A stretch of DNA of 64,000 nucleotides from Dyella jiangningensis (lineage in GTDB: Bacteria > Pseudomonadota > Gammaproteobacteria > Xanthomonadales > Rhodanobacteraceae), in contig NZ_NFZS01000001.1 of assembly GCF_003264855.1 (NCBI RefSeq), positions 1,550,001 through 1,614,000 on the forward strand, given 5' to 3'. Below, one piece after another: positions 54,455-63,040 of this stretch (positions are counted from its first letter, which is position 1; each line of letters starts with the position of its first letter). The notes under the pieces are model-generated. The model had not been told where the DNA came from. It did no database searches and was given only the letters and a program-made list of their open reading frames with translations. A program made the translations under genes and the position numbers.

Positions 54455-55645
54455 ATGCATGCGTCTTCGTCCAGCAGCTGGCGCGCCACGCTCGCCGGCT
54501 TGAGCGCCAGTCTTGTCGGTATCGGGCTGGCGCGTTTTGCGTATACGCCGTTGTTGCCCGCGATCATCGATGCGCATTGGTTCGCGGCGTCGGCCGCGGC
54601 GTATCTCGGCGCGGCCAATCTGGCCGGCTATCTCGCGGGTGCGGTGCTTGCACGTGGCATGGCGCGCCGGATGGGCGCGGCGGCAGCCATCCGGTTGATG
54701 ATGGTCGTCGCCACGCTGGCTTTGCTTGCCTGCGCGCTGCCGGTGTCCTTTATCTGGTTCTTCAGCTGGCGCTTCGCATCAGGTTTCGCCGGTGGCGTCT
54801 TGATGGTGCTGGCGGCGCCGACGGTGCTTCCACGGGTGCCGCCGTCACGGCGCGGGCTTGCTGGTGGCGTGATCTTCATGGGCGTAGGCGTGGGCATCGC
54901 GTTGTCGGGCACGCTCGTTCCGTTGCTGCTTCGCGAGGGGCTGACCATTACCTGGCTTGGCTTGGGCGCGATGGCGGCGCTGCTCACGCTTGCCTCGTGG
55001 AGCAGCTGGCCACGGGAAGGCGTTCACGAGACCACCACCTCGCCACACGCGCCCATGCACGGCAACAGCAGATTGCGCGTGCTCTATGCGGGTTATGGAC
55101 TCAACGCCGTCGGCCTGGTGCCGCACATGATCTTCCTGGTTGATTTCGTGGCGCACGGGCTCGGCCTGGGTCTGCATGCGGGTGCCGCGTACTGGGTGAT
55201 GTTCGGCATCGGCGCGTTGATCGGGCCATTGGCCACGGGACATCTGGCCGATCGCACGGGATTCGGACCCGCCTTGCGCCTTGCCTTCCTGATCGAAGCC
55301 GTGGCGGTGCTGCTGCCTGCCTTGGGGCTGGGGCAGTTCGCGCTCATGGTATCGAGCGTGGTGGTCGGTGCCTTCACTCCGGGTATCGTGCCGCTGGCCC
55401 TCGGGCGTGTGCATGAACTGCTGCCGCATCATGCCGAGGATCAGAAGGCGGCGTGGAGCGCAGCCACCACCAGCTTCGCGGTACTGCAGGCCACGGCCGC
55501 CTACGGCATGTCGTTCCTGTTCGCGCACAACGGCGGCGAGTATCCGTGGCTGTTCGTCATCGGTGCGACAGCCATGGTGCTGGCCCTCGCGATCGATCTC
55601 GTCGCCGCCGTCGCCGGGGCCGGGCGGCGTTTCCCGGTGACCTGA
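54455..55645 (+). CDS. MFS transporter, YbfB/YjiJ family
   Basis: A 396-residue inner-membrane transporter with twelve predicted helices. It matches the YbfB/YjiJ group: LAGLSASLVGIGLARFAYTPLLPAI at the start, VLARGMARRMGAA for the motif A region, and SAATTSFAVLQATAAYG in the second half. Sugar or drug export has been suggested for relatives, without proof. The frame extends upstream to 54326 from a TTG, but the ATG at 54455 begins just before helix 1. It is the last gene on this strand before the bufferin region, 153 bases after the tautomerase gene. Confidence 0.86.
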   Translation: MHASSSSSWRATLAGLSASLVGIGLARFAYTPLLPAIIDAHWFAASAAAYLGAANLAGYLAGAVLARGMARRMGAAAAIRLMMVVATLALLACALPVSFIWFFSWRFASGFAGGVLMVLAAPTVLPRVPPSRRGLAGGVIFMGVGVGIALSGTLVPLLLREGLTITWLGLGAMAALLTLASWSSWPREGVHETTTSPHAPMHGNSRLRVLYAGYGLNAVGLVPHMIFLVDFVAHGLGLGLHAGAAYWVMFGIGALIGPLATGHLADRTGFGPALRLAFLIEAVAVLLPALGLGQFALMVSSVVVGAFTPGIVPLALGRVHELLPHHAEDQKAAWSAATTSFAVLQATAAYGMSFLFAHNGGEYPWLFVIGATAMVLALAIDLVAAVAGAGRRFPVT

Positions 55646-55667
55646 CGCCTGGCGTGCGTGGTGTGGC

Positions 55668-55988
55668 TCAGAGTGGCTGGTCCGAGGACGTGGCGACGGT
55701 CGATGCCAGCTTGTTGACCGGGGCATCGTTCGCCACGTCGACCGGTTGAGGAGCCAGCTGCGAGGGATAGTCGACATTCCAGTCGACGCGATCGCCGGCC
55801 TCGCCACGATGCGGGTCCGGCAGCAGCCTGGACTGCACGGCCACCTGGTAAGTCGCCGCTGACGGCTGCTGCACGGCCTCGTCGGCCATCGCGAGGTGGG
55901 AGACGCCGAGCGCGACAGCGCCCAACAACAATGCGTTGATCACGCGGCGAGGGAGGGGCGGGGTCCGGGTGGAAGGCGAAAGGTTCAT
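55668..55988 (-). CDS. Small secreted protein of unknown function, downstream of bufC
   Basis: A 106-residue exported protein. A basic N-terminus, a hydrophobic core at about residues 18-33 and AMA/DEAV suggest cleavage near residue 36. The mature 70 residues are polar and rich in Ala, Val, Gln and Pro (QPSAATYQVAVQSRLLPDP), with no Cys and no recognised domain. A GGAG lies eight bases before the start. It is on the same strand as the bufferin genes and starts 78 bases after bufC, so it may belong to that transcript. It is not a bufferin itself because Cys is lacking. Confidence 0.6.
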   Translation of the reverse strand: MNLSPSTRTPPLPRRVINALLLGAVALGVSHLAMADEAVQQPSAATYQVAVQSRLLPDPHRGEAGDRVDWNVDYPSQLAPQPVDVANDAPVNKLASTVATSSDQPL

Positions 55989-56066
55989 GATGAGCTCCAG
56001 GGGATGTGGGGGATGAAGCGTGGTGTGAGGCGATGCCTAGGTTCTTCGTTGCTAAGGCGTGAGCGG

Positions 56067-56870
56067 TTACATGGCGGCGGGCGATGTCGCGTGATCGATG
56101 TCGAGCGTTTCGCCGCCTTCATCGCCGTGGATCTCGACGACGATGCCCGCCGCGATCCACTCGGCGAGCAGGGTGCCCGCCTTGGCGATGCCGGCTTCCT
56201 CACCGAGGTGGTCGACCAGGCTCTCGCACAGCGAGGCGAAGCGATCGTCGTCGCACAGCGAGCTGATCGCCGCGAACTCGATGGCGTCGATCGGCTTCAA
56301 CTGGCAAGAGAAGCCACGCCGCCACGCGATGAGGCCCGCAGGCACGTCCAGCATCGCGCCGTCGGGAGCCTCGACACCGTCCTGCCATGCAGACCACACG
56401 GCGTAGGCGTTCGTCGTGGCCGGCCGTTCGCGCAACGAGGCGTTGAGCGCGAGACGGGCATTGTCCCAATCAACCTGCGCCAGCGTGCTTGGCGGCATGA
56501 GCGCGGTATCCGTGGCGACGAACGCTTCCGACAGCGCCCATTCGATCCACGCCAGCTCGTGCAGGTCGGGATGATCCGGGAAGCGTTCGCGCAGCGTGTC
56601 GCCGAAATCGGCGCCATACGCATCGAGCGTCCAGGCGTGTGGCGGATGATCGTCGATATGCGCGACGGCCAACTGGCGAAAGGCATCGGCGCCCATGCGA
56701 GCCAGAAGGAGGGGGTAGCTCGCTTCCAGGCAGCCCACCAGTTGGACGCGGTAGTTGTTCTGGTAGACGGTGAGTCCGTGCGCGGCACCTGCGTCCAGGT
56801 GCTGCTCGACGGCAGCGGACGAAGTCACCAGCCACTGCCGGAAATCGCGTTGGAGTTCGGCGAGCTTCAT
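56067..56870 (-). CDS. bufC: HvfC/BufC-type (DUF2063) RiPP partner protein
   Basis: A 267-residue DUF2063 protein, the partner that helps the DUF692/MNIO enzyme bind its precursor peptide. The N-terminal domain is clear: LAELQRDFRQWLV, YQNNYRVQLVGCLEASYPLLLARMGADAFRQLA and FAWIEWAL-like helices. The C-terminal half (GEEAGIAKAGTLLAEWIAAGIVVEI) is the winged region that recalls a peptide-recognition element. Database name 'putative DNA-binding' is misleading for these. The start overlaps the bufB stop by four bases (ATGA). Confidence 0.87.
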   Translation of the reverse strand: MKLAELQRDFRQWLVTSSAAVEQHLDAGAAHGLTVYQNNYRVQLVGCLEASYPLLLARMGADAFRQLAVAHIDDHPPHAWTLDAYGADFGDTLRERFPDHPDLHELAWIEWALSEAFVATDTALMPPSTLAQVDWDNARLALNASLRERPATTNAYAVWSAWQDGVEAPDGAMLDVPAGLIAWRRGFSCQLKPIDAIEFAAISSLCDDDRFASLCESLVDHLGEEAGIAKAGTLLAEWIAAGIVVEIHGDEGGETLDIDHATSPAAM

Positions 56871-57712
56871 GCCGCCTCCGCCACGTCGCGCGAGCGGCAG
56901 GCGATATCGCGCGCCGTGTCGAGTTCGTCGAGAAGGTCTGCCAGCGGCGGAATCGCTCCGTCGCGTTCGATCATGGTGGCCACGGGGCCGAGGCGCAACA
57001 TGGCTTTCGCATACAGCGACCACACGTCGTCGTTCACCGCTTGGTCGTGCGTATCGATCAGCAGTCCATCGCCTTGCGTATGACCGGCCAAATGGATCTG
57101 CCGCACGCGATCAGCCGGAATGCCGTGCAGATAGACGTCCGCGTCCCAGCCATGGTTCTGCGTGCTGACGAAGATGTTGTTGATGTCGAGCAGCAGTCCG
57201 CAGCCGGTACGCCTGGACATCTCGTTGAGGAATTCCCACTCGGCCATGGTCGATGCCTCGAAGGTGAGGTAGCTCGACGGGTTTTCGAACAGCATCGAGC
57301 GGCCCATCGCCTCCTGCGCCATATCGATGTTCCGGCACACCACGGCAAGGGTTTCCTCGGTGTAAGGCAGCGGCAGCAGGTCGTGCGAGTTGAAATGCGC
57401 AAAGCGCGACCAGCTCAGGTGATCGGACACGAACAGCGGTTCGATGCGATCCACCAACGTGCGCAGGCGACGCAGGTAGCCGGGGTTGAGCCCATCGGCC
57501 GAACCGATCGACATCGACACGCCATGCAGGGCCACCGGATGCTTCTCGCGCACGCGGCGCAGGATGTCCAGCGGCTGCCCGCCGTCCACCATGAAGTTTT
57601 CCGAGATCACTTCGACGAAATCGACGGGCACGTCGCCGTCGAGGAAATCGCGGTAATGCTCCCGGCGCAGGCCCAGGCCAAAACCAGCGAACGTCGGTGG
57701 GGGATTGAACAT
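56867..57712 (-). CDS. bufB: DUF692/MNIO bufferin maturase
   Basis: A 281-residue multinuclear non-haem iron oxidase (MNIO, DUF692). This family converts Cys residues of RiPP precursors into oxygenated heterocycles (oxazolone/thioamide in methanobactin by MbnB; 5-thiooxazole in bufferins). The TIM-barrel metal site is visible as ALHGVSMSI, SDHLSWS, FENPSSY, LLLDINNIFVS, QIHLAGH, IDTHDQAV and ERDG, giving the expected His, Asp, Glu and Asn ligands. The start has GGAG seven bases upstream. It follows the bufA1-like gene by 53 bases and is coupled to bufC. Confidence 0.92.
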   Translation of the reverse strand: MFNPPPTFAGFGLGLRREHYRDFLDGDVPVDFVEVISENFMVDGGQPLDILRRVREKHPVALHGVSMSIGSADGLNPGYLRRLRTLVDRIEPLFVSDHLSWSRFAHFNSHDLLPLPYTEETLAVVCRNIDMAQEAMGRSMLFENPSSYLTFEASTMAEWEFLNEMSRRTGCGLLLDINNIFVSTQNHGWDADVYLHGIPADRVRQIHLAGHTQGDGLLIDTHDQAVNDDVWSLYAKAMLRLGPVATMIERDGAIPPLADLLDELDTARDIACRSRDVAEAA

Positions 57713-57765
57713 GGCGTGCTCCGAAAGGCTGGATAGGGAAGGGACCCGGGCGGGCCCCGTGCGGC

Positions 57766-58053
57766 TTACTGCTTGGGTTCGGTGAGCGTGCCGCCGGCGG
57801 CGAGGCAGGCGCTCTTGGTCTTCACGACGACACCCTGGCCCTTGCAATCATTGAGGCCCTTGCAGTCGTGCTTGGCGGTGGCGCAGAGGCTCTCGCCCTT
57901 GCAGGAATTGACGCCGTAGCAGCGGCCCGGCTCTTCCTTCTGCACGCCCTGGTCGGCGGCGCGCACCGGCGAGGCGATGGAGGCAACGGCGAGGGCGACG
58001 AGGGCGGCGGCAGCGGCGAAGCTGGTGCGGGGTTTGATGGCGATCGTGCTCAT
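57766..58053 (-). CDS. bufA1: BufA1-type (DUF2282) bufferin precursor
   Basis: A 95-residue DUF2282 protein. A long signal peptide (residues 1-32, cleaving after Val-Arg-Ala) is characteristic: bufferins are exported by Sec and hold copper in the periplasm. The mature 63 residues contain six Cys at 45, 51, 57, 64, 70 and 83, spaced about six apart in repeats of Cys-Lys-Gly or Cys-Tyr-Gly (RCYGVNSCKGE, HDCKGLNDCKGQG). Such Cys are modified by BufB in characterised relatives. It lies upstream of bufB with a 53-base gap and downstream of an alpha/beta hydrolase gene. Confidence 0.9.
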   Translation of the reverse strand: MSTIAIKPRTSFAAAAALVALAVASIASPVRAADQGVQKEEPGRCYGVNSCKGESLCATAKHDCKGLNDCKGQGVVVKTKSACLAAGGTLTEPKQ

Positions 58054-58093
58054 GGGATGGTTCCTTGGTGGTGGGTCGAGGAGGGAGGGGGAC

Positions 58094-58849
58094 TTACTTG
58101 ACGCTCTTGGCGGCGTCTTCGATCACTTTCGCGACCGCTTCGGGCTGCGAGATGTAGACGACGTGGCTGGCCTTGATTTCGGTGACCTTGGAGCCGGCGC
58201 GCTGGTACATCCAGCGCTGCAGGTCGGGGCTGAGCGCGTGGTCGTCGGTGGTCACCACGGCCCAGGTGGGCTTGCTGTGCCACGCGGCGACAGCCATCGT
58301 GGTGCCGAACGCGGCGGCGGTGGCCGGCACCTGCGACACCGCCATGAAGTCGGTGCGATTCCTGGTGAGATCACCGGCGAAATCGGTACCGAACTTCTTC
58401 GCATCGAAGTAGAGATGGCCATCGCGCGTCGGCACCACGTCATTGCTCGGCGCCGGCATCGAGCCGACCAGCTGCGAGAGGCTCTCGCCGACATCCGGCT
58501 GCAGCGCGGCGACGTACACCAGCGCCTTCACCTTGTCGCGATTGCCGGCCTCGGTGATCACCGTGCCGCCGTAGCTGTGGCCGACCAGCACGACCGGACC
58601 ATCCTGGCGACGGATCAGTTCACGCGCCTGCTCGACGTCGTCGGCCAGCGATTCGATATGAGGCTGCGCGACGGTGACGGTGTAGCCCTTGTGGATGAGG
58701 ATGTCGTGGACGACGCGCCAGCCGGAGCCGTCGACGAAGGCGCCCGGCACGATGACGATGTTCTTTACGCTAGTTGGCGCGGCATCGGCGGCGAAGGCCG
58801 GTGCGGTGGAGGCCATCAGCGCGATGGCGACAAACAGCAGCTTGCGCAT
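58094..58849 (-). CDS. Secreted alpha/beta hydrolase inside the bufferin run
   Basis: A 251-residue exported protein with a signal peptide (residues 1-22, ending AFAAD). The alpha/beta-hydrolase fold is plain: VIVPGAFVDGSGW, the nucleophile elbow GHSYGG with its catalytic Ser, and a late ASHVVYISQPEAVAKVI segment holding the His. Catalytic Asp lies near TTDDHALSP. It resembles EstC/pyrethroid-hydrolase-like alpha/beta-hydrolases, which have varied substrates. AGGA is eight bases before the start. It sits between doxX and bufA1 with 40-50 base gaps and so probably shares their transcript. Confidence 0.84.
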   Translation of the reverse strand: MRKLLFVAIALMASTAPAFAADAAPTSVKNIVIVPGAFVDGSGWRVVHDILIHKGYTVTVAQPHIESLADDVEQARELIRRQDGPVVLVGHSYGGTVITEAGNRDKVKALVYVAALQPDVGESLSQLVGSMPAPSNDVVPTRDGHLYFDAKKFGTDFAGDLTRNRTDFMAVSQVPATAAAFGTTMAVAAWHSKPTWAVVTTDDHALSPDLQRWMYQRAGSKVTEIKASHVVYISQPEAVAKVIEDAAKSVK

Positions 58850-58898
58850 GGAGTGCGTTCCTTGAGTCTGGATCAGAAGAGAGAGAGGGAGCGGAAGC

Positions 58899-59378
58899 TC
58901 AGTGCCGTTCGCGCCGTGCATGCCAGAGGTGGTCGAGCGACCAGTCACCGGCACCGCGCAACACCAGCGGCAACAGCAGGGCCGCCCAGCTGAGGTGCGT
59001 GGGCCACGCATCGGGATAGACGAAGATCTCGATCACCAGCGTCATCGCCAACAGGGCCAGCGCAGACATCCGCGTGAACAGGCCGAGCACCAGCAGCAGG
59101 GGAAACAGGTGTTCGGCGCCGGTGGCAAGTCGAGCTGCCCAGTCCGACGGAATCAGCGGCAACGCGTATTCCGAGGCGAACAGCTCGTAGGTCGACGGCT
59201 TGATCGAAAGGAAACCTTCGACCTTGGTGCGGCCCGACTGGAAGAACACCGCGGCAATGCCCAGGCGCGCCACCAGCGGTATCAGCGCGTCGGGTAACCG
59301 GTGCGATCCGCGGGCAGCCAGCGACGGAGCGTCGCTGGCCGGCAAAGCGGGCGACCACGTCCGCTCCGCGGTGTTCAC
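58899..59378 (-). CDS. DoxX family membrane protein
   Basis: A 159-residue DoxX protein with four hydrophobic helices ([25 protein letters not shown] begins the first; [27 protein letters not shown] the next two). DoxX proteins often accompany bufferin and other MNIO loci and are thought to link to quinone or thiol redox at the inner membrane. The start is a GTG overlapping the bufA2 stop (GTGA); an open frame running through bufA2 upstream is a shadow. About 35 residues precede the first helix. Confidence 0.87.
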
Positions 59379-59650
59379 GACTTGGCCTCGAGGGAGCCGT
59401 GCCCCTTGGGCGTCTCGATAGTGGTGCAGGTGCCCTTCTTGACCAGTACCCAGGCATTGCCCTGGTAGTCGACCTTGGAGGTACCCGCGCAGGTGGTGCC
59501 AGGGCCGGCGGCGCAATCGTTCTTGCCGGCCTGGGCAACGCCGTAGCATTTTTCCATCGGGGTCTTGGCTTCGTCGGCGTGGACGGAACCGGCGAGCGCG
59601 GCGAGGCTCAGGGCAAACGAGGCGGCAAGGGCGGCGTGCGTACGCTTCAT
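59375..59650 (-). CDS. bufA2: BufA2-type bufferin precursor
   Basis: A 91-residue secreted protein. The signal peptide ends at His-Ala/Asp-Glu (residue 25). The mature part has four Cys at 35, 46, 54 and 75 in the BufA2 pattern: [34 protein letters not shown] and [16 protein letters not shown]. Compared with the bufA1-like precursor it has fewer Cys and conserved Gly/Asp/Trp between them. AAGGA lies seven bases before the ATG. No second MNIO gene is seen near, so BufB at 56867 would have to serve both precursors, or another maturase lies elsewhere in the genome. Coupled to doxX. Confidence 0.9.
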
Positions 59651-59688
59651 GGGGCGATCCTTTGGTGATGGGTGAGTGAGGTGTGGAT

Positions 59689-60099
59689 TCAGACGAGCGT
59701 GATCGTGACGTCGATGTTTCCGCGGGTGGCCTTGGAGTACGGGCAGGTCTGGTGCGCGGCGTCGATCAGCGACTGCGCAACGGCGCGGTCGAGACCCGGC
59801 AGCGACACGGCAAGGCGTGCCTGCAGGACGTAACCGCTCTCGCCATTGGCCAGGTCGATCTCGGCGGACACGGCGGTGCCGGCGGGCAGGGCGATCTTGT
59901 TGGCGCGGGCCGCCAGGGTCATTGCGCCGATGAAGCAGGCCGACCAGCCCGCGCCAAACAGCTGCTCCGGGTTGGTGCCGGTGCCGCTGGAGCCGGGCGT
60001 CGAAAGCTTGATGTCGAGGCGACCATCGTCGCTGCGGCTCTGGCCGTCGCGGCCGCCGGTGGTATGGGTCTTGCCGGTGTAGAGGATGGTGCTGGACAT
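59689..60099 (-). CDS. ohr: Organic hydroperoxide resistance protein, Ohr
   Basis: A 136-residue OsmC-fold peroxidase of the Ohr group, which reduces organic and fatty acid hydroperoxides with lipoyl groups as donors. Catalytic Cys55 (GWSACFIG) and resolving Cys119 (HQTCPYS) are in place, with the TGTNPEQLF and KATRGNIDV motifs. AAGGA precedes the start by nine bases. It lies 38 bases upstream of bufA2 on the same strand, so it may be the first gene of the bufferin transcript; no ohrR is beside it. Confidence 0.92.
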
Positions 60100-60226
60100 G
60101 GCGGTTTTCCTTGGGAGTGGGTGGTCATGGCTGGTGATCAGCCGGTGTGCATAGGAAACCGTCGGCGGGTATCCCTCGTGTGTCCCGCGATGGGCCAAAA
60201 CGCATCGAAATGTGTAGTTGCGGGCG

Positions 60227-60300
60227 TTGGATACATTTGGATACAAGTCCGCCGCGCCCGGCGTCGCTGGCGCCCTGGGCGCTTGTACAAAGCGATACAA
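60227..60300. promoter_or_regulatory. Two pairs of 10-bp-spaced GATACA-type repeats in a divergent promoter
   Basis: In the 304-base gap between ohr and the redoxin gene, TTGGATACA is repeated with GATACA beginning at 60230 and 60240. A second pair, TGTACAA at 60284 and GATACAA at 60294, has the same 10-base step, 54 bases from the first. A 10-base step puts both half-sites on one DNA face, as in sites of OmpR-family regulators, and such a regulator is coded 0.7 kb away. I see nothing else notable in this gap. Confidence 0.55.
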
Positions 60301-60403
60301 AAAGCCTGTTCGGCCGACATGCCCGGGATAAACGGGGTTGTTCCAATGCATGCACACAGGATGCGCACCCGCCGCGCGTCCACTGCCTATGGAGACCCCG
60401 ACC

Positions 60404-60946
60404 ATGATTTCCCTTCGTTACGCAGCCGCCGCCCTCGCCCTCGTGGCGGCACTGTTCGCCGCCTGGCCCGGTACCGGCAGCGTCGCCAACGCCGGCACGC
60501 CCGTTGCCCAGGCAACAGCCCCCGATTTCACCGGCGCCACGCGCTGGTTCAACTCGTCACCGCTGTCCATGGATCAACTGAGGGGCAAGGTGGTGCTGGT
60601 GGAGTTCTGGACGCGCGAATGCATCAATTGCCTTCACGTGCTGCCGCACACCAAGGAGCTCTATCAGCGCTACGCAGGCGATGGCTTGGTCGTGGTCGGC
60701 GTGCACACGCCCGAGTACGACGAAGAACGCGATCCCGCCGCGTTGAAGGCAGCCATCCAGCGCCTGGGCATCACCTATCCGGTGGCCCAGGACAACGAGA
60801 GCCATGTGTGGAATGCCTACGGCAACCAGTTCTGGCCAGCCATCTATCTGATCGATCAGAACGGGAAGGTGGTGTATCGCCACGTGGGTGAGGGAAACTA
60901 CGAGCAGACCGAGGCCGCTGTCCGCAAGCTGCTGGGCAAGGCCTGA
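60404..60946 (+). CDS. Periplasmic TlpA-like redoxin
   Basis: A 180-residue exported thioredoxin-fold protein. A signal peptide or N-terminal anchor spans residues 1-32. The active site is Cys-Ile-Asn-Cys (73-76) in VEFWTRECINCLHVLP; a cis-Pro occurs in QFWPAIYLI. The longer helix after strand 3 (PEYDEERDPAALKAAIQRLGI) marks the DsbE/TlpA/DipZ-C-like group. It would reduce or isomerise thiols, or protect Cys ligands for copper, in the periplasm. GGAG lies ten bases before the ATG at 60404; ATGs further up lack one. Divergent from ohr and 40 bases before the response regulator gene. Confidence 0.87.
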   Translation: MISLRYAAAALALVAALFAAWPGTGSVANAGTPVAQATAPDFTGATRWFNSSPLSMDQLRGKVVLVEFWTRECINCLHVLPHTKELYQRYAGDGLVVVGVHTPEYDEERDPAALKAAIQRLGITYPVAQDNESHVWNAYGNQFWPAIYLIDQNGKVVYRHVGEGNYEQTEAAVRKLLGKA

Positions 60947-60986
60947 CTCACGCACCACCGCACGCCATCCAACCAACGGAGACGGC

Positions 60987-61727
60987 ATGGAACATGTCGA
61001 TCACATCCTCGTCGTCGATGACGACCACGGCATCCGCACCGGCATCGTGGACTACCTGCGCAAGAACGGCCTGCGCGCGACCCCGGCCGCCGATGGACGG
61101 GAGATGTTCGCGCAGCTGGATACCTCGGCGTTCGACCTGGTCGTGCTCGACATCATGATGCCGGGCGACGATGGCCTGGTGCTGTGCCGCAACCTGCGCA
61201 GCGGCAAGCATCGCCACGTGCCCGTCGTGCTGCTGACGGCGCGTGACGATGAAACCGATCGCATCATCGGCCTGGAAATGGGCGCGGACGACTATGTCAC
61301 CAAGCCGTTCTCGCCGCGCGAACTGCTGGCGCGCATCAAGGCGGTGATTCGCCGTACGCGCATGCTGCCACCGAACCTGCGCGTCACCGAAACCAGCGAA
61401 ACGATCTCGTTCGGCCGCTGGCGCCTGGACACCACCGCGCGTCATCTGCTGGACGAGGACGGCACGGTGGTGTCGCTGAGCGGCGCGGAGTTCCGACTGC
61501 TGCGCGTGTTCCTCGATCACCCGCAACGCGTGCTCTCGCGCGACCAGCTGCTCAACCTCACGCAGGGCAGGGACGCAGAGTTGTTCGACCGCTCCATCGA
61601 TCTGCTGGTGAGCCGCCTGCGCCAACGCCTGCTCGACGGCGCCAGGGATCAGGCCTACATCAAGACCGTGCGCAGCGAAGGCTACGTGTTCAGCATGCCG
61701 GTGACCGTGCACGGGCCGGGCGCATGA
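60987..61727 (+). CDS. OmpR-family response regulator
   Basis: A 246-residue regulator. The receiver domain has the acidic pocket DDD (11-13), phospho-acceptor Asp55 (VVLDIMMPG), Thr in LLTARD and Lys in TKPFSP. The C-terminal winged helix (about 140-240) has the OmpR pattern: LSGAEFRLLRVFLDHPQRVLSRDQLL, then DRSIDLLVSRLRQRL and IKTVRSEGYVF. GGAGACGGC precedes the ATG. The ATGA overlap with the histidine kinase gene makes a co-translated pair. It may bind the GATACA repeats at 60227-60300 and thereby control both divergent transcripts. Confidence 0.93.
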   Translation: MEHVDHILVVDDDHGIRTGIVDYLRKNGLRATPAADGREMFAQLDTSAFDLVVLDIMMPGDDGLVLCRNLRSGKHRHVPVVLLTARDDETDRIIGLEMGADDYVTKPFSPRELLARIKAVIRRTRMLPPNLRVTETSETISFGRWRLDTTARHLLDEDGTVVSLSGAEFRLLRVFLDHPQRVLSRDQLLNLTQGRDAELFDRSIDLLVSRLRQRLLDGARDQAYIKTVRSEGYVFSMPVTVHGPGA

Positions 61728-63040
61728 ACGTGGCTGCCGCACCGAGCCGGCACTGGCTGCCGCCCAGCATGGCCGCGCGCCTGTACCTCATCATTTTCGC
61801 CGGGCTGATGCTGGCGCAGGGCCTGTCGTTCGCGCTGCTGTACTTCGAGCGCATGCAGAGCGCGACGGCGGTGATGTTCAATACGCTGGAGCACGACGTC
61901 GGCACGTCCGTCGCCGTGTTCGACCGGCTGCCGGCCGACGAACGCCCGCGCTGGCTCAACCGGCTGGAGCGCGACAACTACTTCTACATCCTCGGCGCCG
62001 GCGCGCCGGGGCACACGCTGGCGACGCAACGATCGAAGGGCGCGGTGGACATGATCGCCCGTGAAGTCGGCCCCGATTACCACGTCTACGGCAACACTAC
62101 GTCCATGTCGCCGGAACGCTACCAGGTGCACTTCACCCTGCACGATGGCGCGCCGCTGACGCTGGAGATCACGCCGCATATGAAGCCCGTGGCCTCCTGG
62201 CTGCCGTTCGTGTTCGTGCTGCAGGTGGTGTTGCTGCTGCTGTGTACCTGGTTCGCCGTGCGACTGGCGACGCGCCCGCTGGCCACGCTGGCCGAAGCCG
62301 CCGATGCGATGAAGCCCACGGCCGACGGCCCGCGCATGTCGCAGGACGGCCCCACCGAAGTGGCGCGCGCGGCGCGGGCGTTCAACACCATGCAGGACCG
62401 CATCGCCCAGCACCTTAAGGAGCGCCTGCACATCCTCGCGTCCATCTCGCACGACCTGCAGACGCCGATCACGCGCATGCGCCTGCATGTGGAGGCGCTG
62501 GACGAATCGCCCGAGCAGGACAAGCTGCTGGATGACCTGCGCGAGATGGAACACCTCGTGCGCGAGGGCGTGGCCTATGCGCGCAGTGCGCATGGTGGGG
62601 CGGAAACGCCGGTGCGCATCAATCTCGGCTCGTTCCTGGAAAGCCTCGCGTTCGACTATCAGGACGTCGGGCAACCGGTGTCGCTGTCGGGCACCATCGA
62701 TGGCACGTCCATGGTGCGCGCGCAGGCGCTGCGGCGCGTGCTCGGCAATCTGGTGGACAACGCGATCAAGTACGGCGGCTCGGCGGAGATCGGCGCGAAG
62801 CGCGATCCGCAAGGCGCGTTGTGCATCACCGTGTCCGATCGCGGTCCGGGCATTCCCGAAGGCGAACTCGAACGCGTGCTGCAGCCGTTCTACCGGTTGG
62901 AGTCTTCGCGCAATCGCAACACGGGCGGCTCGGGCCTGGGATTGGCGATTGCCGCGCAGTTGACCAGCTCCATCGGCGGACAACTGACATTGAGCCGTCG
63001 CGACGGCGGTGGGCTCACCGCAACGGTGTCGCTGCCCTGA
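61724..63040 (+). CDS. Membrane histidine kinase with HAMP domain
   Basis: A 438-residue sensor kinase. TM1 lies at about residues 20-42, a periplasmic sensor domain of about 110 residues follows (PERPRWLNRLERDNYFYIL and similar, no obvious Cu-binding His/Met cluster), then TM2 (FVFVLQVVLLLLCTWFAV). HAMP follows, then the phospho-acceptor His243 in SISHDLQTP. The ATPase has the N box (LGNLVDNAIKYG), G1 (SDRGPGIP) and G2 (GGSGLGLAI). It resembles EnvZ/QseC-type kinases in plan. The input signal is unknown; copper or thiol stress is inferred only from neighbours. It is coupled to the response regulator. Confidence 0.92.
   Translation: MNVAAAPSRHWLPPSMAARLYLIIFAGLMLAQGLSFALLYFERMQSATAVMFNTLEHDVGTSVAVFDRLPADERPRWLNRLERDNYFYILGAGAPGHTLATQRSKGAVDMIAREVGPDYHVYGNTTSMSPERYQVHFTLHDGAPLTLEITPHMKPVASWLPFVFVLQVVLLLLCTWFAVRLATRPLATLAEAADAMKPTADGPRMSQDGPTEVARAARAFNTMQDRIAQHLKERLHILASISHDLQTPITRMRLHVEALDESPEQDKLLDDLREMEHLVREGVAYARSAHGGAETPVRINLGSFLESLAFDYQDVGQPVSLSGTIDGTSMVRAQALRRVLGNLVDNAIKYGGSAEIGAKRDPQGALCITVSDRGPGIPEGELERVLQPFYRLESSRNRNTGGSGLGLAIAAQLTSSIGGQLTLSRRDGGGLTATVSLP

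What the first reader, a model, noticed from the sequence alone, without database searches (positions are those of the whole stretch)
55668..60099. Composite bufferin locus: two precursor classes served by one MNIO maturase
Directly seen: two small secreted Cys proteins of different pattern (six Cys and four Cys), one DUF692 gene and one DUF2063 gene, all on one strand with short gaps or overlaps. Known: bufferins are copper-binding RiPPs whose Cys are oxidised by BufB with BufC. In described loci each precursor type usually has its own B/C set. Here BufA2 is separated from BufB by doxX, a hydrolase and bufA1. Either one maturase accepts both cores or BufA2 is modified elsewhere.
Basis: partly seen in the sequence, partly recalled or inferred. 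Interest (0 to 1): 0.85.

Follow-up and report, generated by a model that had tools for sequence, protein, structure and literature searches.

The report
Two copper peptides, one modifying enzyme
A soil bacterium encodes two different small peptides of a copper-binding kind but only one enzyme pair likely to finish them; the same arrangement recurs in other proteobacteria, so it is a ready test of whether one such enzyme can serve two kinds of peptide.

Summary
The transcribed order is Ohr, Buf1, DoxX, alpha/beta hydrolase, Buf2, BufB, BufC, with gaps of 53 bp or less and two 4-bp overlaps. The layout is not a one-off. Of the 80 nearest BufB relatives kept from a genome scan, 78 have Buf1 nearby (the other two lie at contig ends), 78 have Buf2, and all 80 have one MNIO in the fetched stretch. 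In 10 of 48 such genomes searched whole, the composite locus holds the only MNIO and the only DUF2282 found. These BufBs form one clade nested in Buf2-type MNIOs. In a sister locus type each precursor usually has its own MNIO. Best reading: a Buf2-lineage BufBC also matures Buf1. Modification itself is unproven. A matching gene list was catalogued in Pseudomonas ('Pep4', 2021), and MNIOs with several substrates have been suggested in print. New variant of a known kind.

The parts
59689..60099 (-). Ohr/OsmC-family peroxiredoxin, first gene of the run
   Evidence: TIGR03561 166.6 bits (cut-off 88.85); present in 13 of 15 composite loci of the family; absent from most other scan loci
59375..59650 (-).
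   Evidence: PF10048 88.9 bits; only DUF2282 match in the genome
58899..59378 (-). DoxX-family membrane protein (HvfX-like)
   Evidence: PF07681 62.2 bits; NF050144 56.6 bits, below its cut-off of 80
58094..58849 (-). secreted-looking alpha/beta hydrolase-fold protein, Ser92/Asp203/His229 in this copy
   Evidence: PF12697 86.3 bits; hit in 71 of 80 scan loci; Ser replaced in 28 of 71 aligned proteins
57766..58053 (-).
   Evidence: NF050166 88.5 bits, cut-off 60; only over-cut-off match in the genome
56867..57712 (-). BufB, MNIO (DUF692) maturase; Asp251 followed by Gly252
   Evidence: NF050167 376.4 bits, cut-off 310; only MNIO match in the genome; composite clade of Buf2-type MNIOs
56067..56870 (-). 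BufC, DUF2063 (PME-type 1) partner protein
   Evidence: PF09836 69.4 bits; only DUF2063 match in the genome; NF050145 (HvfC) 25.9 bits, below its cut-off of 142
55668..55988 (-). 106-aa secreted-looking ORF without Cys; lineage-specific, probably not core
   Evidence: no Pfam/NCBIfam match; seen in 1 of 15 related composite loci at 27 bits
60338..60946 (+). divergent TlpA/ResA-like thiol-disulfide protein (longest ORF; the start may lie further in)
   Evidence: PF08534 61 bits; in 14 of 15 family composite loci
60990..63040 (+). divergent two-component system: response regulator 60990-61727, histidine kinase 61724-63040
   Evidence: PF00072/PF00486 and PF02518/PF00512/PF00672; regulator in 14 of 15 family composite loci

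Best explanation
This is a composite bufferin operon. One Buf2-lineage MNIO/DUF2063 complex (BufB-BufC) converts selected Cys of two secreted precursors, Buf2 (6 Cys) and Buf1 (4 Cys, DUF2282), probably to 5-thiooxazoles, before Sec export; the two products then bind excess copper in the periplasm. DoxX, Ohr and the hydrolase-fold protein act alongside, and the divergent two-component system probably regulates the run. Shown here by sequence: gene content and order, single MNIO and single partner in the genome, conserved linkage across genera, MNIO phylogeny. Inferred: modification of both precursors, the chemistry, copper binding, regulation.
For: One MNIO, one DUF2063, one DUF2282 and one over-cut-off Buf2 match in a 99.99% complete genome. 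Of 80 scan loci, 78 have Buf1, 78 have Buf2 and all 80 have exactly one MNIO (over 100 bits) in the fetched stretch; the two loci without Buf1 end at a contig edge. The linkage survives changes of gene order and, in 7 of 78, of Buf1 strand. In 10 of 48 composite genomes searched whole, the only MNIO and the only DUF2282 found lie together on one contig; in 10 of 15 composite genomes of the family no Buf1-type MNIO was found. Buf1 keeps its four Cys in the 78 scan copies (75 by pattern, 3 read by eye). BufB is nested in Buf2-type MNIOs, beside the Buf2 MNIO of a sister locus type in which Buf1 usually has its own MNIO. Buf1 and Buf2 profiles are related (hhalign probability 96.3). The residue after the catalytic Asp, Asp in Cys-Lys (Buf2) MNIOs according to PMC13097082, is something else in 25 of 96 composite-clade rows against 3 of 79 other Buf2-type rows; in the window it is Gly, as in 7 of 7 Buf1-partnered MNIOs of the sister loci.
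Against: No modification, expression or metal binding was measured. Most composite BufBs (71 of 96 rows) keep the Asp; PMC13097082 found that FonB variants at this site (F250A, F250D) still make the product, although F250D also accepted one substrate variant that the wild type did not, so the residue is a weak predictor. The Cys-Ala variant at the third Buf2 Cys, which would have tied the two cores together, also occurs outside composite loci and is missing in sphingomonad composites. PMC12452194 (section 19) reports that areas of the MNIO network correspond to specific precursor families. Conserved linkage could also reflect a need for unmodified Buf1. 38 of the 48 composite genomes searched whole have more than one MNIO match, and I did not classify those extra MNIOs.
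Confidence: 0.72

Rival explanations
1. Only Buf2 is modified. Buf1 lost its own maturase and is now exported as an unmodified Cys protein with another job (thiol buffer or partner of DoxX).
For: Sister loci usually give Buf1 its own MNIO (7 of 8); the eighth, L053, lacks that MNIO but keeps a BufC-like gene and Buf1; PMC12452194 explicitly leaves open that some precursors stay unmodified.
Against: Buf1 keeps all four Cys in the 78 scan copies and the two central Cys keep nearly constant contexts; it stays near BufBC in each of the 78 scan loci that do not end at a contig edge, through gene-order changes.
Confidence: 0.17
2. Buf1 is modified in trans by another MNIO encoded elsewhere.
For: 38 of 48 composite genomes searched whole have more than one MNIO match; 5 of 15 composite genomes of the family also hold a Buf1-type MNIO.
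Against: The window's genome has one MNIO match; 10 of 48 others also have a single MNIO and a single DUF2282. In the family's composite genomes, 15 of the 22 further MNIOs are Buf2-type, 5 are Buf1-type beside their own DUF2282 gene and 2 are very distant.
Confidence: 0.05
3. The operon serves oxidative, chlorine or thiol stress rather than copper; the peptides quench oxidants or other metals.
For: Neighbours are Ohr, a TlpA-like protein and DoxX; [quoted passage not shown]
Against: Characterised bufferins bind copper and improve growth in excess copper (PMC12452194, discussion); Ohr is absent from most scan loci outside Dyella/Luteibacter.
Confidence: 0.2
4. Two unrelated transcription units that happen to lie side by side.
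For: In sphingomonad loci Buf1-DoxX lies on the opposite strand (7 of 78 loci).
Against: Gaps of 53 bp or less and two 4-bp overlaps in the window run; no promoter-like hit in 55500-60500 and the one terminator-like hit lies inside bufC; synteny across genera.
Confidence: 0.03

Closest known systems
'Pep4' putative gene cluster of Pseudomonas fluorescens strains (PMC8719888, passages read)
   Same: Listed as DUF2282 peptide, DoxX, hydrolase, short peptide without conserved domain, DUF692, DUF2063, hydrolase: the same core list in the same order.
   Different: In the passages read the second peptide is not recognised as a Buf2 bufferin and a shared maturase is not discussed; the window has no second hydrolase right after BufC.
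Buf2 (Buf_6/12Cys) bufferin cluster (PMC12452194)
   Same: Buf2-BufB-BufC core; the MNIO is Buf2-type by tree.
   Different: Carries in addition Buf1, DoxX and a hydrolase-fold gene in the same run.
Buf1 (DUF2282) bufferin cluster, Caulobacter vibrioides type (PMC12452194)
   Same: DUF2282 precursor with four Cys, here followed by DoxX, a core gene of such clusters.
   Different: No Buf1-type MNIO; no sigma or anti-sigma family among the window genes scanned with Pfam.
Two-set locus of family relatives (L050-L057 here)
   Same: Buf1, DoxX, Buf2, BufB2, BufC2 in one run; BufB2 and DoxX are the nearest kin of the composite ones on the trees made.
   Different: Buf1 has its own MNIO (7 of 8) and a BufC-like gene (weak hits, 7 of 8); no hydrolase hit.
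Captophorins (PMC13097082)
   Same: MNIO plus PME1 partner with a Cys-rich precursor; that definition includes DUF2282 and Cys-Lys precursors; 5-thiooxazole is proposed as the common product.
   Different: The products whose structures were worked out there (fontiphorin, oxazolin, gonophorin) have EGKCG repeats, with Phe after the catalytic Asp in that MNIO group; the sections read do not treat one MNIO with two precursor categories.

Membership tests
Bufferin/captophorin gene cluster | MNIO of the bufferin maturase family | tested here: met
   NF050167 376.4 bits over a cut-off of 310
Bufferin/captophorin gene cluster | adjacent DUF2063 (PME-type 1) partner | tested here: met
   PF09836 69.4 bits over 27.2; 4-bp overlap with bufB
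Bufferin/captophorin gene cluster | Cys precursor recognised by a bufferin family model | tested here: met
   PF10048 88.9 bits and NF050166 88.5 bits, both over cut-off
Bufferin/captophorin gene cluster | Sec signal peptide on the precursor | tested here: inconclusive
   Judged by eye from the alignments only; no signal-peptide program was run
Bufferin/captophorin gene cluster | Cys converted to thiooxazole, copper binding | not testable with these tools
   needs mass spectrometry, UV and metal assays
Buf1 (DUF2282) family | DUF2282 model match and four conserved Cys | tested here: met
   PF10048 88.9 bits; four Cys
Buf1 (DUF2282) cluster | Buf1-type MNIO in the cluster | tested here: not met
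   The only MNIO is on the Buf2 side of the tree
Buf2 (6/12-Cys) family | Buf2 model match and six Cys | tested here: met
   NF050166 88.5 bits over 60; six Cys
Buf2 (6/12-Cys) family | multiple Cys-Lys motifs | tested here: met
   Three Cys-Lys; the third Cys is followed by Ala
Active alpha/beta hydrolase | Ser-His-Asp triad | tested here: inconclusive
   Present in the window; Ser lost in 28 of 71 aligned proteins while Asp and His stay in 71 of 71; triad positions assigned by motif, no structure

The most novel reading that the evidence does not exclude
The composite BufB clade is bispecific: a Buf2 maturase that took over Buf1 after the dedicated Buf1 maturase was lost. The hydrolase-fold protein, whose catalytic Ser is often replaced while Asp and His are kept, is a non-catalytic third component of this two-product system (a periplasmic carrier or holder for the mature peptides).
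Probability: 0.22. Interest if true: 0.75.

Novelty: new variant of a known kind. Interest (0 to 1): 0.55.

Why it matters
[quoted passage not shown] Strains with a single MNIO and two different precursor families in one operon make that question directly testable, and the sister loci with one maturase per precursor supply natural controls. If BufBC takes both cores, MNIO recognition would be broad (perhaps through signal peptide and partner protein) rather than set by the core, which matters for predicting and engineering these peptides.

Tried and rejected
Cys-Ala at the third Buf2 Cys as a mark of the composite class: rejected as diagnostic. It is frequent in composite loci but absent in sphingomonad ones and present in some other Buf2 loci.

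Another residue in place of Asp after the catalytic Asp as the cause of dual specificity: kept only as a hint. 71 of 96 composite rows keep Asp, and FonB variants at this site still make product, with one change in substrate tolerance reported (PMC13097082, section 14). The comparison set of 79 other Buf2-type rows includes four loci (L077, L080-L082) that have Buf1 near a single MNIO; L080 had no letter at this position and was not counted.

Direction of change (loss of the Buf1 maturase from a two-set ancestor, or gain): not settled. MNIO and DoxX trees put the two locus types side by side, but the Buf1 tree is too short to resolve it. L053 shows a two-set type locus without the Buf1 MNIO.

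Promoter and terminator scan: no promoter-like hit (0.5 expected) and one terminator-like hit inside bufC (2.6 expected) in 55500-60500; uninformative beyond agreeing with one run.

A fold-based look at the hydrolase-fold protein was planned and could not be run. The original bufferin paper did not appear in the library listings that I saw and was not read.

Selection notes: the 80 scan loci are the best 80 of 298 relatives, so the 78 of 80 count describes the nearest kin of the query, not all Buf2-type MNIOs. 48 genomes were searched and 2 were not held; completeness of those genomes was not given. The 40 control loci were taken from the top of the over-cut-off Buf2 rows without DUF2282 nearby; 34 MNIOs came from them. 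Nearness of DUF2282 and Buf2 was read by eye from the listings. The BUF1 and DoxX trees used every third scan locus.
Full report
WHAT IS THERE. On the minus strand, in transcription order, the window has Ohr (60099-59689), a 4-Cys DUF2282 protein (59650-59375), DoxX (59378-58899), a secreted-looking alpha/beta hydrolase-fold protein (58849-58094), a 6-Cys protein (58053-57766), an MNIO (57712-56867), a DUF2063 protein (56870-56067) and a 106-aa ORF (55988-55668). Gaps from Ohr to BufC are 38, 49, 40 and 53 bp, with 4-bp overlaps at Buf1/DoxX and BufB/BufC. Family models settle the names: DUF2282 88.9 bits for the 4-Cys protein, BufA2 88.5 bits (cut-off 60) for the 6-Cys protein, MNIO_BufB 376.4 bits (cut-off 310), DUF2063 69.4 bits. 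The maturase lies next to Buf2, and Buf1 is the distal one.

NO SECOND MATURASE FOUND. The window's genome (4.76 Mb, 7 contigs, 99.99% complete) has one PF05114 match, one DUF2282, one over-cut-off Buf2 (its second, sub-threshold match is the Buf1 gene itself) and one DUF2063.

HOW COMMON IS IT IN THE FAMILY. In 117 genomes of the family, 86 have an MNIO, 41 a DUF2282 and 45 an over-cut-off Buf2. Reading the coordinates together by eye, 15 of the 117 genomes (16 loci, window included) have DUF2282 about 1.5 kb upstream of Buf2-MNIO on one strand. All 15 loci fetched besides the window (L035-L049) have Buf1-DoxX-hydrolase-Buf2-BufB-BufC; 13 also have Ohr, and 14 have the divergent TlpA-like gene and response regulator. 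In 10 of the 15 composite genomes no Buf1-type MNIO was found; their other MNIOs are composite or Buf2-type, plus one very distant MNIO each in G053 and G068. The other 5 do hold a Buf1-type MNIO, beside its own DUF2282 gene. A second locus type (L050-L057, 8 loci) has Buf1-MNIO-BufC-DoxX-Buf2-MNIO-BufC; the Buf1 MNIO is found in 7 of 8 and the Buf1-side BufC-like gene in 7 of 8 (weak scores). In L053 the Buf1 MNIO is missing, while Buf1 and the BufC-like gene are 12 bp apart.

HOW COMMON OUTSIDE. A scan of genome contigs with an alignment of 11 composite BufBs found 298 relatives and kept 80: Dyella, Luteibacter, Pseudomonas, Burkholderia/Paraburkholderia/Caballeronia, Cupriavidus, Massilia, Duganella, Undibacterium, Novosphingobium, Sphingomonas and others. 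Of the 80 loci, 78 have Buf1, 78 have Buf2, 77 have both, 71 have the hydrolase-fold gene and all 80 have one MNIO in the fetched stretch. The two without Buf1 (L103, L155) lie at a contig end; L130 and L155 lack Buf2. Order varies: 32 are Buf1-DoxX-hydrolase-Buf2-BufB-BufC, 16 have the same with Ohr in front, 10 are Buf1-hydrolase-Buf2-BufB-BufC-DoxX, and 7, all from sphingomonads, have Buf1-DoxX on the other strand and no hydrolase hit. Of 50 of these loci handed to a whole-genome search, 48 were searched: 10 genomes have exactly one MNIO and exactly one DUF2282, together on one contig; they are from Pseudomonas, Cupriavidus, Novosphingobium/Sphingobium and an Oxalobacteraceae bacterium. The other 38 have more than one MNIO match; I did not classify those.

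In a class-wide sample of 369 genomes the composite layout of the window was seen only in the window's own genome. Outside it, DUF2282 and an over-cut-off Buf2 lie within about 12 kb in 8 loci. Two of these have two full sets (L076, L078). Five have one MNIO near both (L075, L077, L080-L082; the MNIO of L080 is split over two ORFs). One has Buf1-DoxX about 10 kb away from Buf2-BufBC (L079). L075, a 5.2-kb stretch that ends with its contig, is the mirror case: its single MNIO is Buf1-type by tree.

WHERE THE MATURASE COMES FROM. In a tree of 75 family MNIOs the 16 composite ones form one clade (SH-aLRT 99) inside the Buf2-type side, beside the Buf2 MNIO of the two-set loci and L059. With scan and control loci added, the composite clade is 96 rows with support 98-99 and contains none of the 34 MNIOs from 40 control loci. 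DoxX of composite and two-set loci also group together (support 89). So the composite locus looks like a two-set locus without the Buf1 maturase and its partner, with a hydrolase-fold gene added; the direction of change is not proven.

CAN ONE ENZYME TAKE BOTH. Buf1 keeps four Cys in the 78 scan copies (75 by pattern, 3 by eye), mostly DCAA and [ST]CA[GA] around the two central Cys, which PMC12452194 names as the modified ones in Buf1. Buf1 and Buf2 profiles align over signal peptide and core (probability 96.3, E 2e-9, 15 sequences each). PMC13097082 (section 14) reports that the residue after the catalytic Asp is Phe in Lys-Cys MNIOs, Asp in Cys-Lys (Buf2) MNIOs and unconserved in DUF2282 MNIOs. 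Here it is Asp in 76 of 79 other Buf2-type rows but something else in 25 of 96 composite rows (3 against 8 changes on the tree), Gly in the window, and Gly in 7 of 7 Buf1 MNIOs of the two-set loci. This fits relaxed specificity but is weak: most composite enzymes keep Asp, and FonB variants at this site still made product (one, F250D, accepted a substrate variant that the wild type did not). A Cys-Ala variant at the third Buf2 Cys is common in composite loci but not diagnostic.

A SIDE FINDING. The hydrolase-fold protein keeps Asp203 and His229 in 71 of 71 aligned proteins (window plus 70 scan loci), while the nucleophile is Ser in 43, Gly in 16 and Asp in 12. An operon member this widely kept that so often lacks its nucleophile suggests a non-catalytic role. 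The number of independent losses was not counted.

WHAT IS IN PRINT. PMC12452194 (abstract, sections 14, 18, 19, 21 and passages read) reports tandem precursor genes, suggests that some MNIOs may have more than one substrate, notes genomes with several precursors and one MNIO/PME-type 1 pair, and leaves it open whether a single complex modifies several precursors. PMC13097082 (abstract, sections 7, 10, 13, 14 read) gives 5-thiooxazole as the common product. PMC8719888 (passages read) lists 'Pep4' in Pseudomonas: DUF2282 peptide, DoxX, hydrolase, short peptide, DUF692, DUF2063, hydrolase. PMC12538549 (passages read) describes a one-precursor copper-binding RiPP cluster. Other papers were seen as search listings only. 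I found no paper that describes a Buf1+Buf2, one-MNIO class in the searches, but supplementary cluster tables could not be opened and the original bufferin paper was not read.

VERDICT. New variant of a known kind.

Noticed in passing
window 58849-58094 and homologues in L083-L162: Secreted-looking alpha/beta hydrolase-fold protein in 71 of 80 scan loci; the catalytic Ser is replaced by Gly or Asp in 28 of 71 aligned proteins while Asp203 and His229 never change, suggesting a pseudo-hydrolase.
   Followed up: partly
L053 5562-6587: A two-set type locus without the Buf1 MNIO that keeps Buf1 and a BufC-like gene, 12 bp apart: a possible natural intermediate between the two-set and composite layouts.
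   Followed up: partly
L075 3429-4896: Mirror composite: Buf2-Buf1-BufB-BufC-DoxX with a Buf1-type MNIO (EWD in place of ERD) as the only MNIO on the short fetched stretch.
   Followed up: partly
L080 4218-5098; L043 3506-4346: The MNIO (L080) and BufC (L043) are each split over two overlapping ORFs, either damaged genes or assembly errors.
   Followed up: no
L130 4728-7586: Massilia polaris locus with one BufBC and Buf1 but no Buf2 detected and only a short hydrolase-fold ORF; another locus of the same strain, L113, has both precursors.
   Followed up: no
window 60338-63040: Divergent TlpA-like gene followed by an OmpR-type response regulator and histidine kinase; the first two are kept beside 14 of 15 composite loci in the family: likely regulator of the operon.
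   Followed up: partly
L203 2385-3314; L204 3732-4805: Very distant MNIOs (about 180 bits with the local profile) with no bufferin gene hit nearby: a different MNIO family in two relatives.
   Followed up: no
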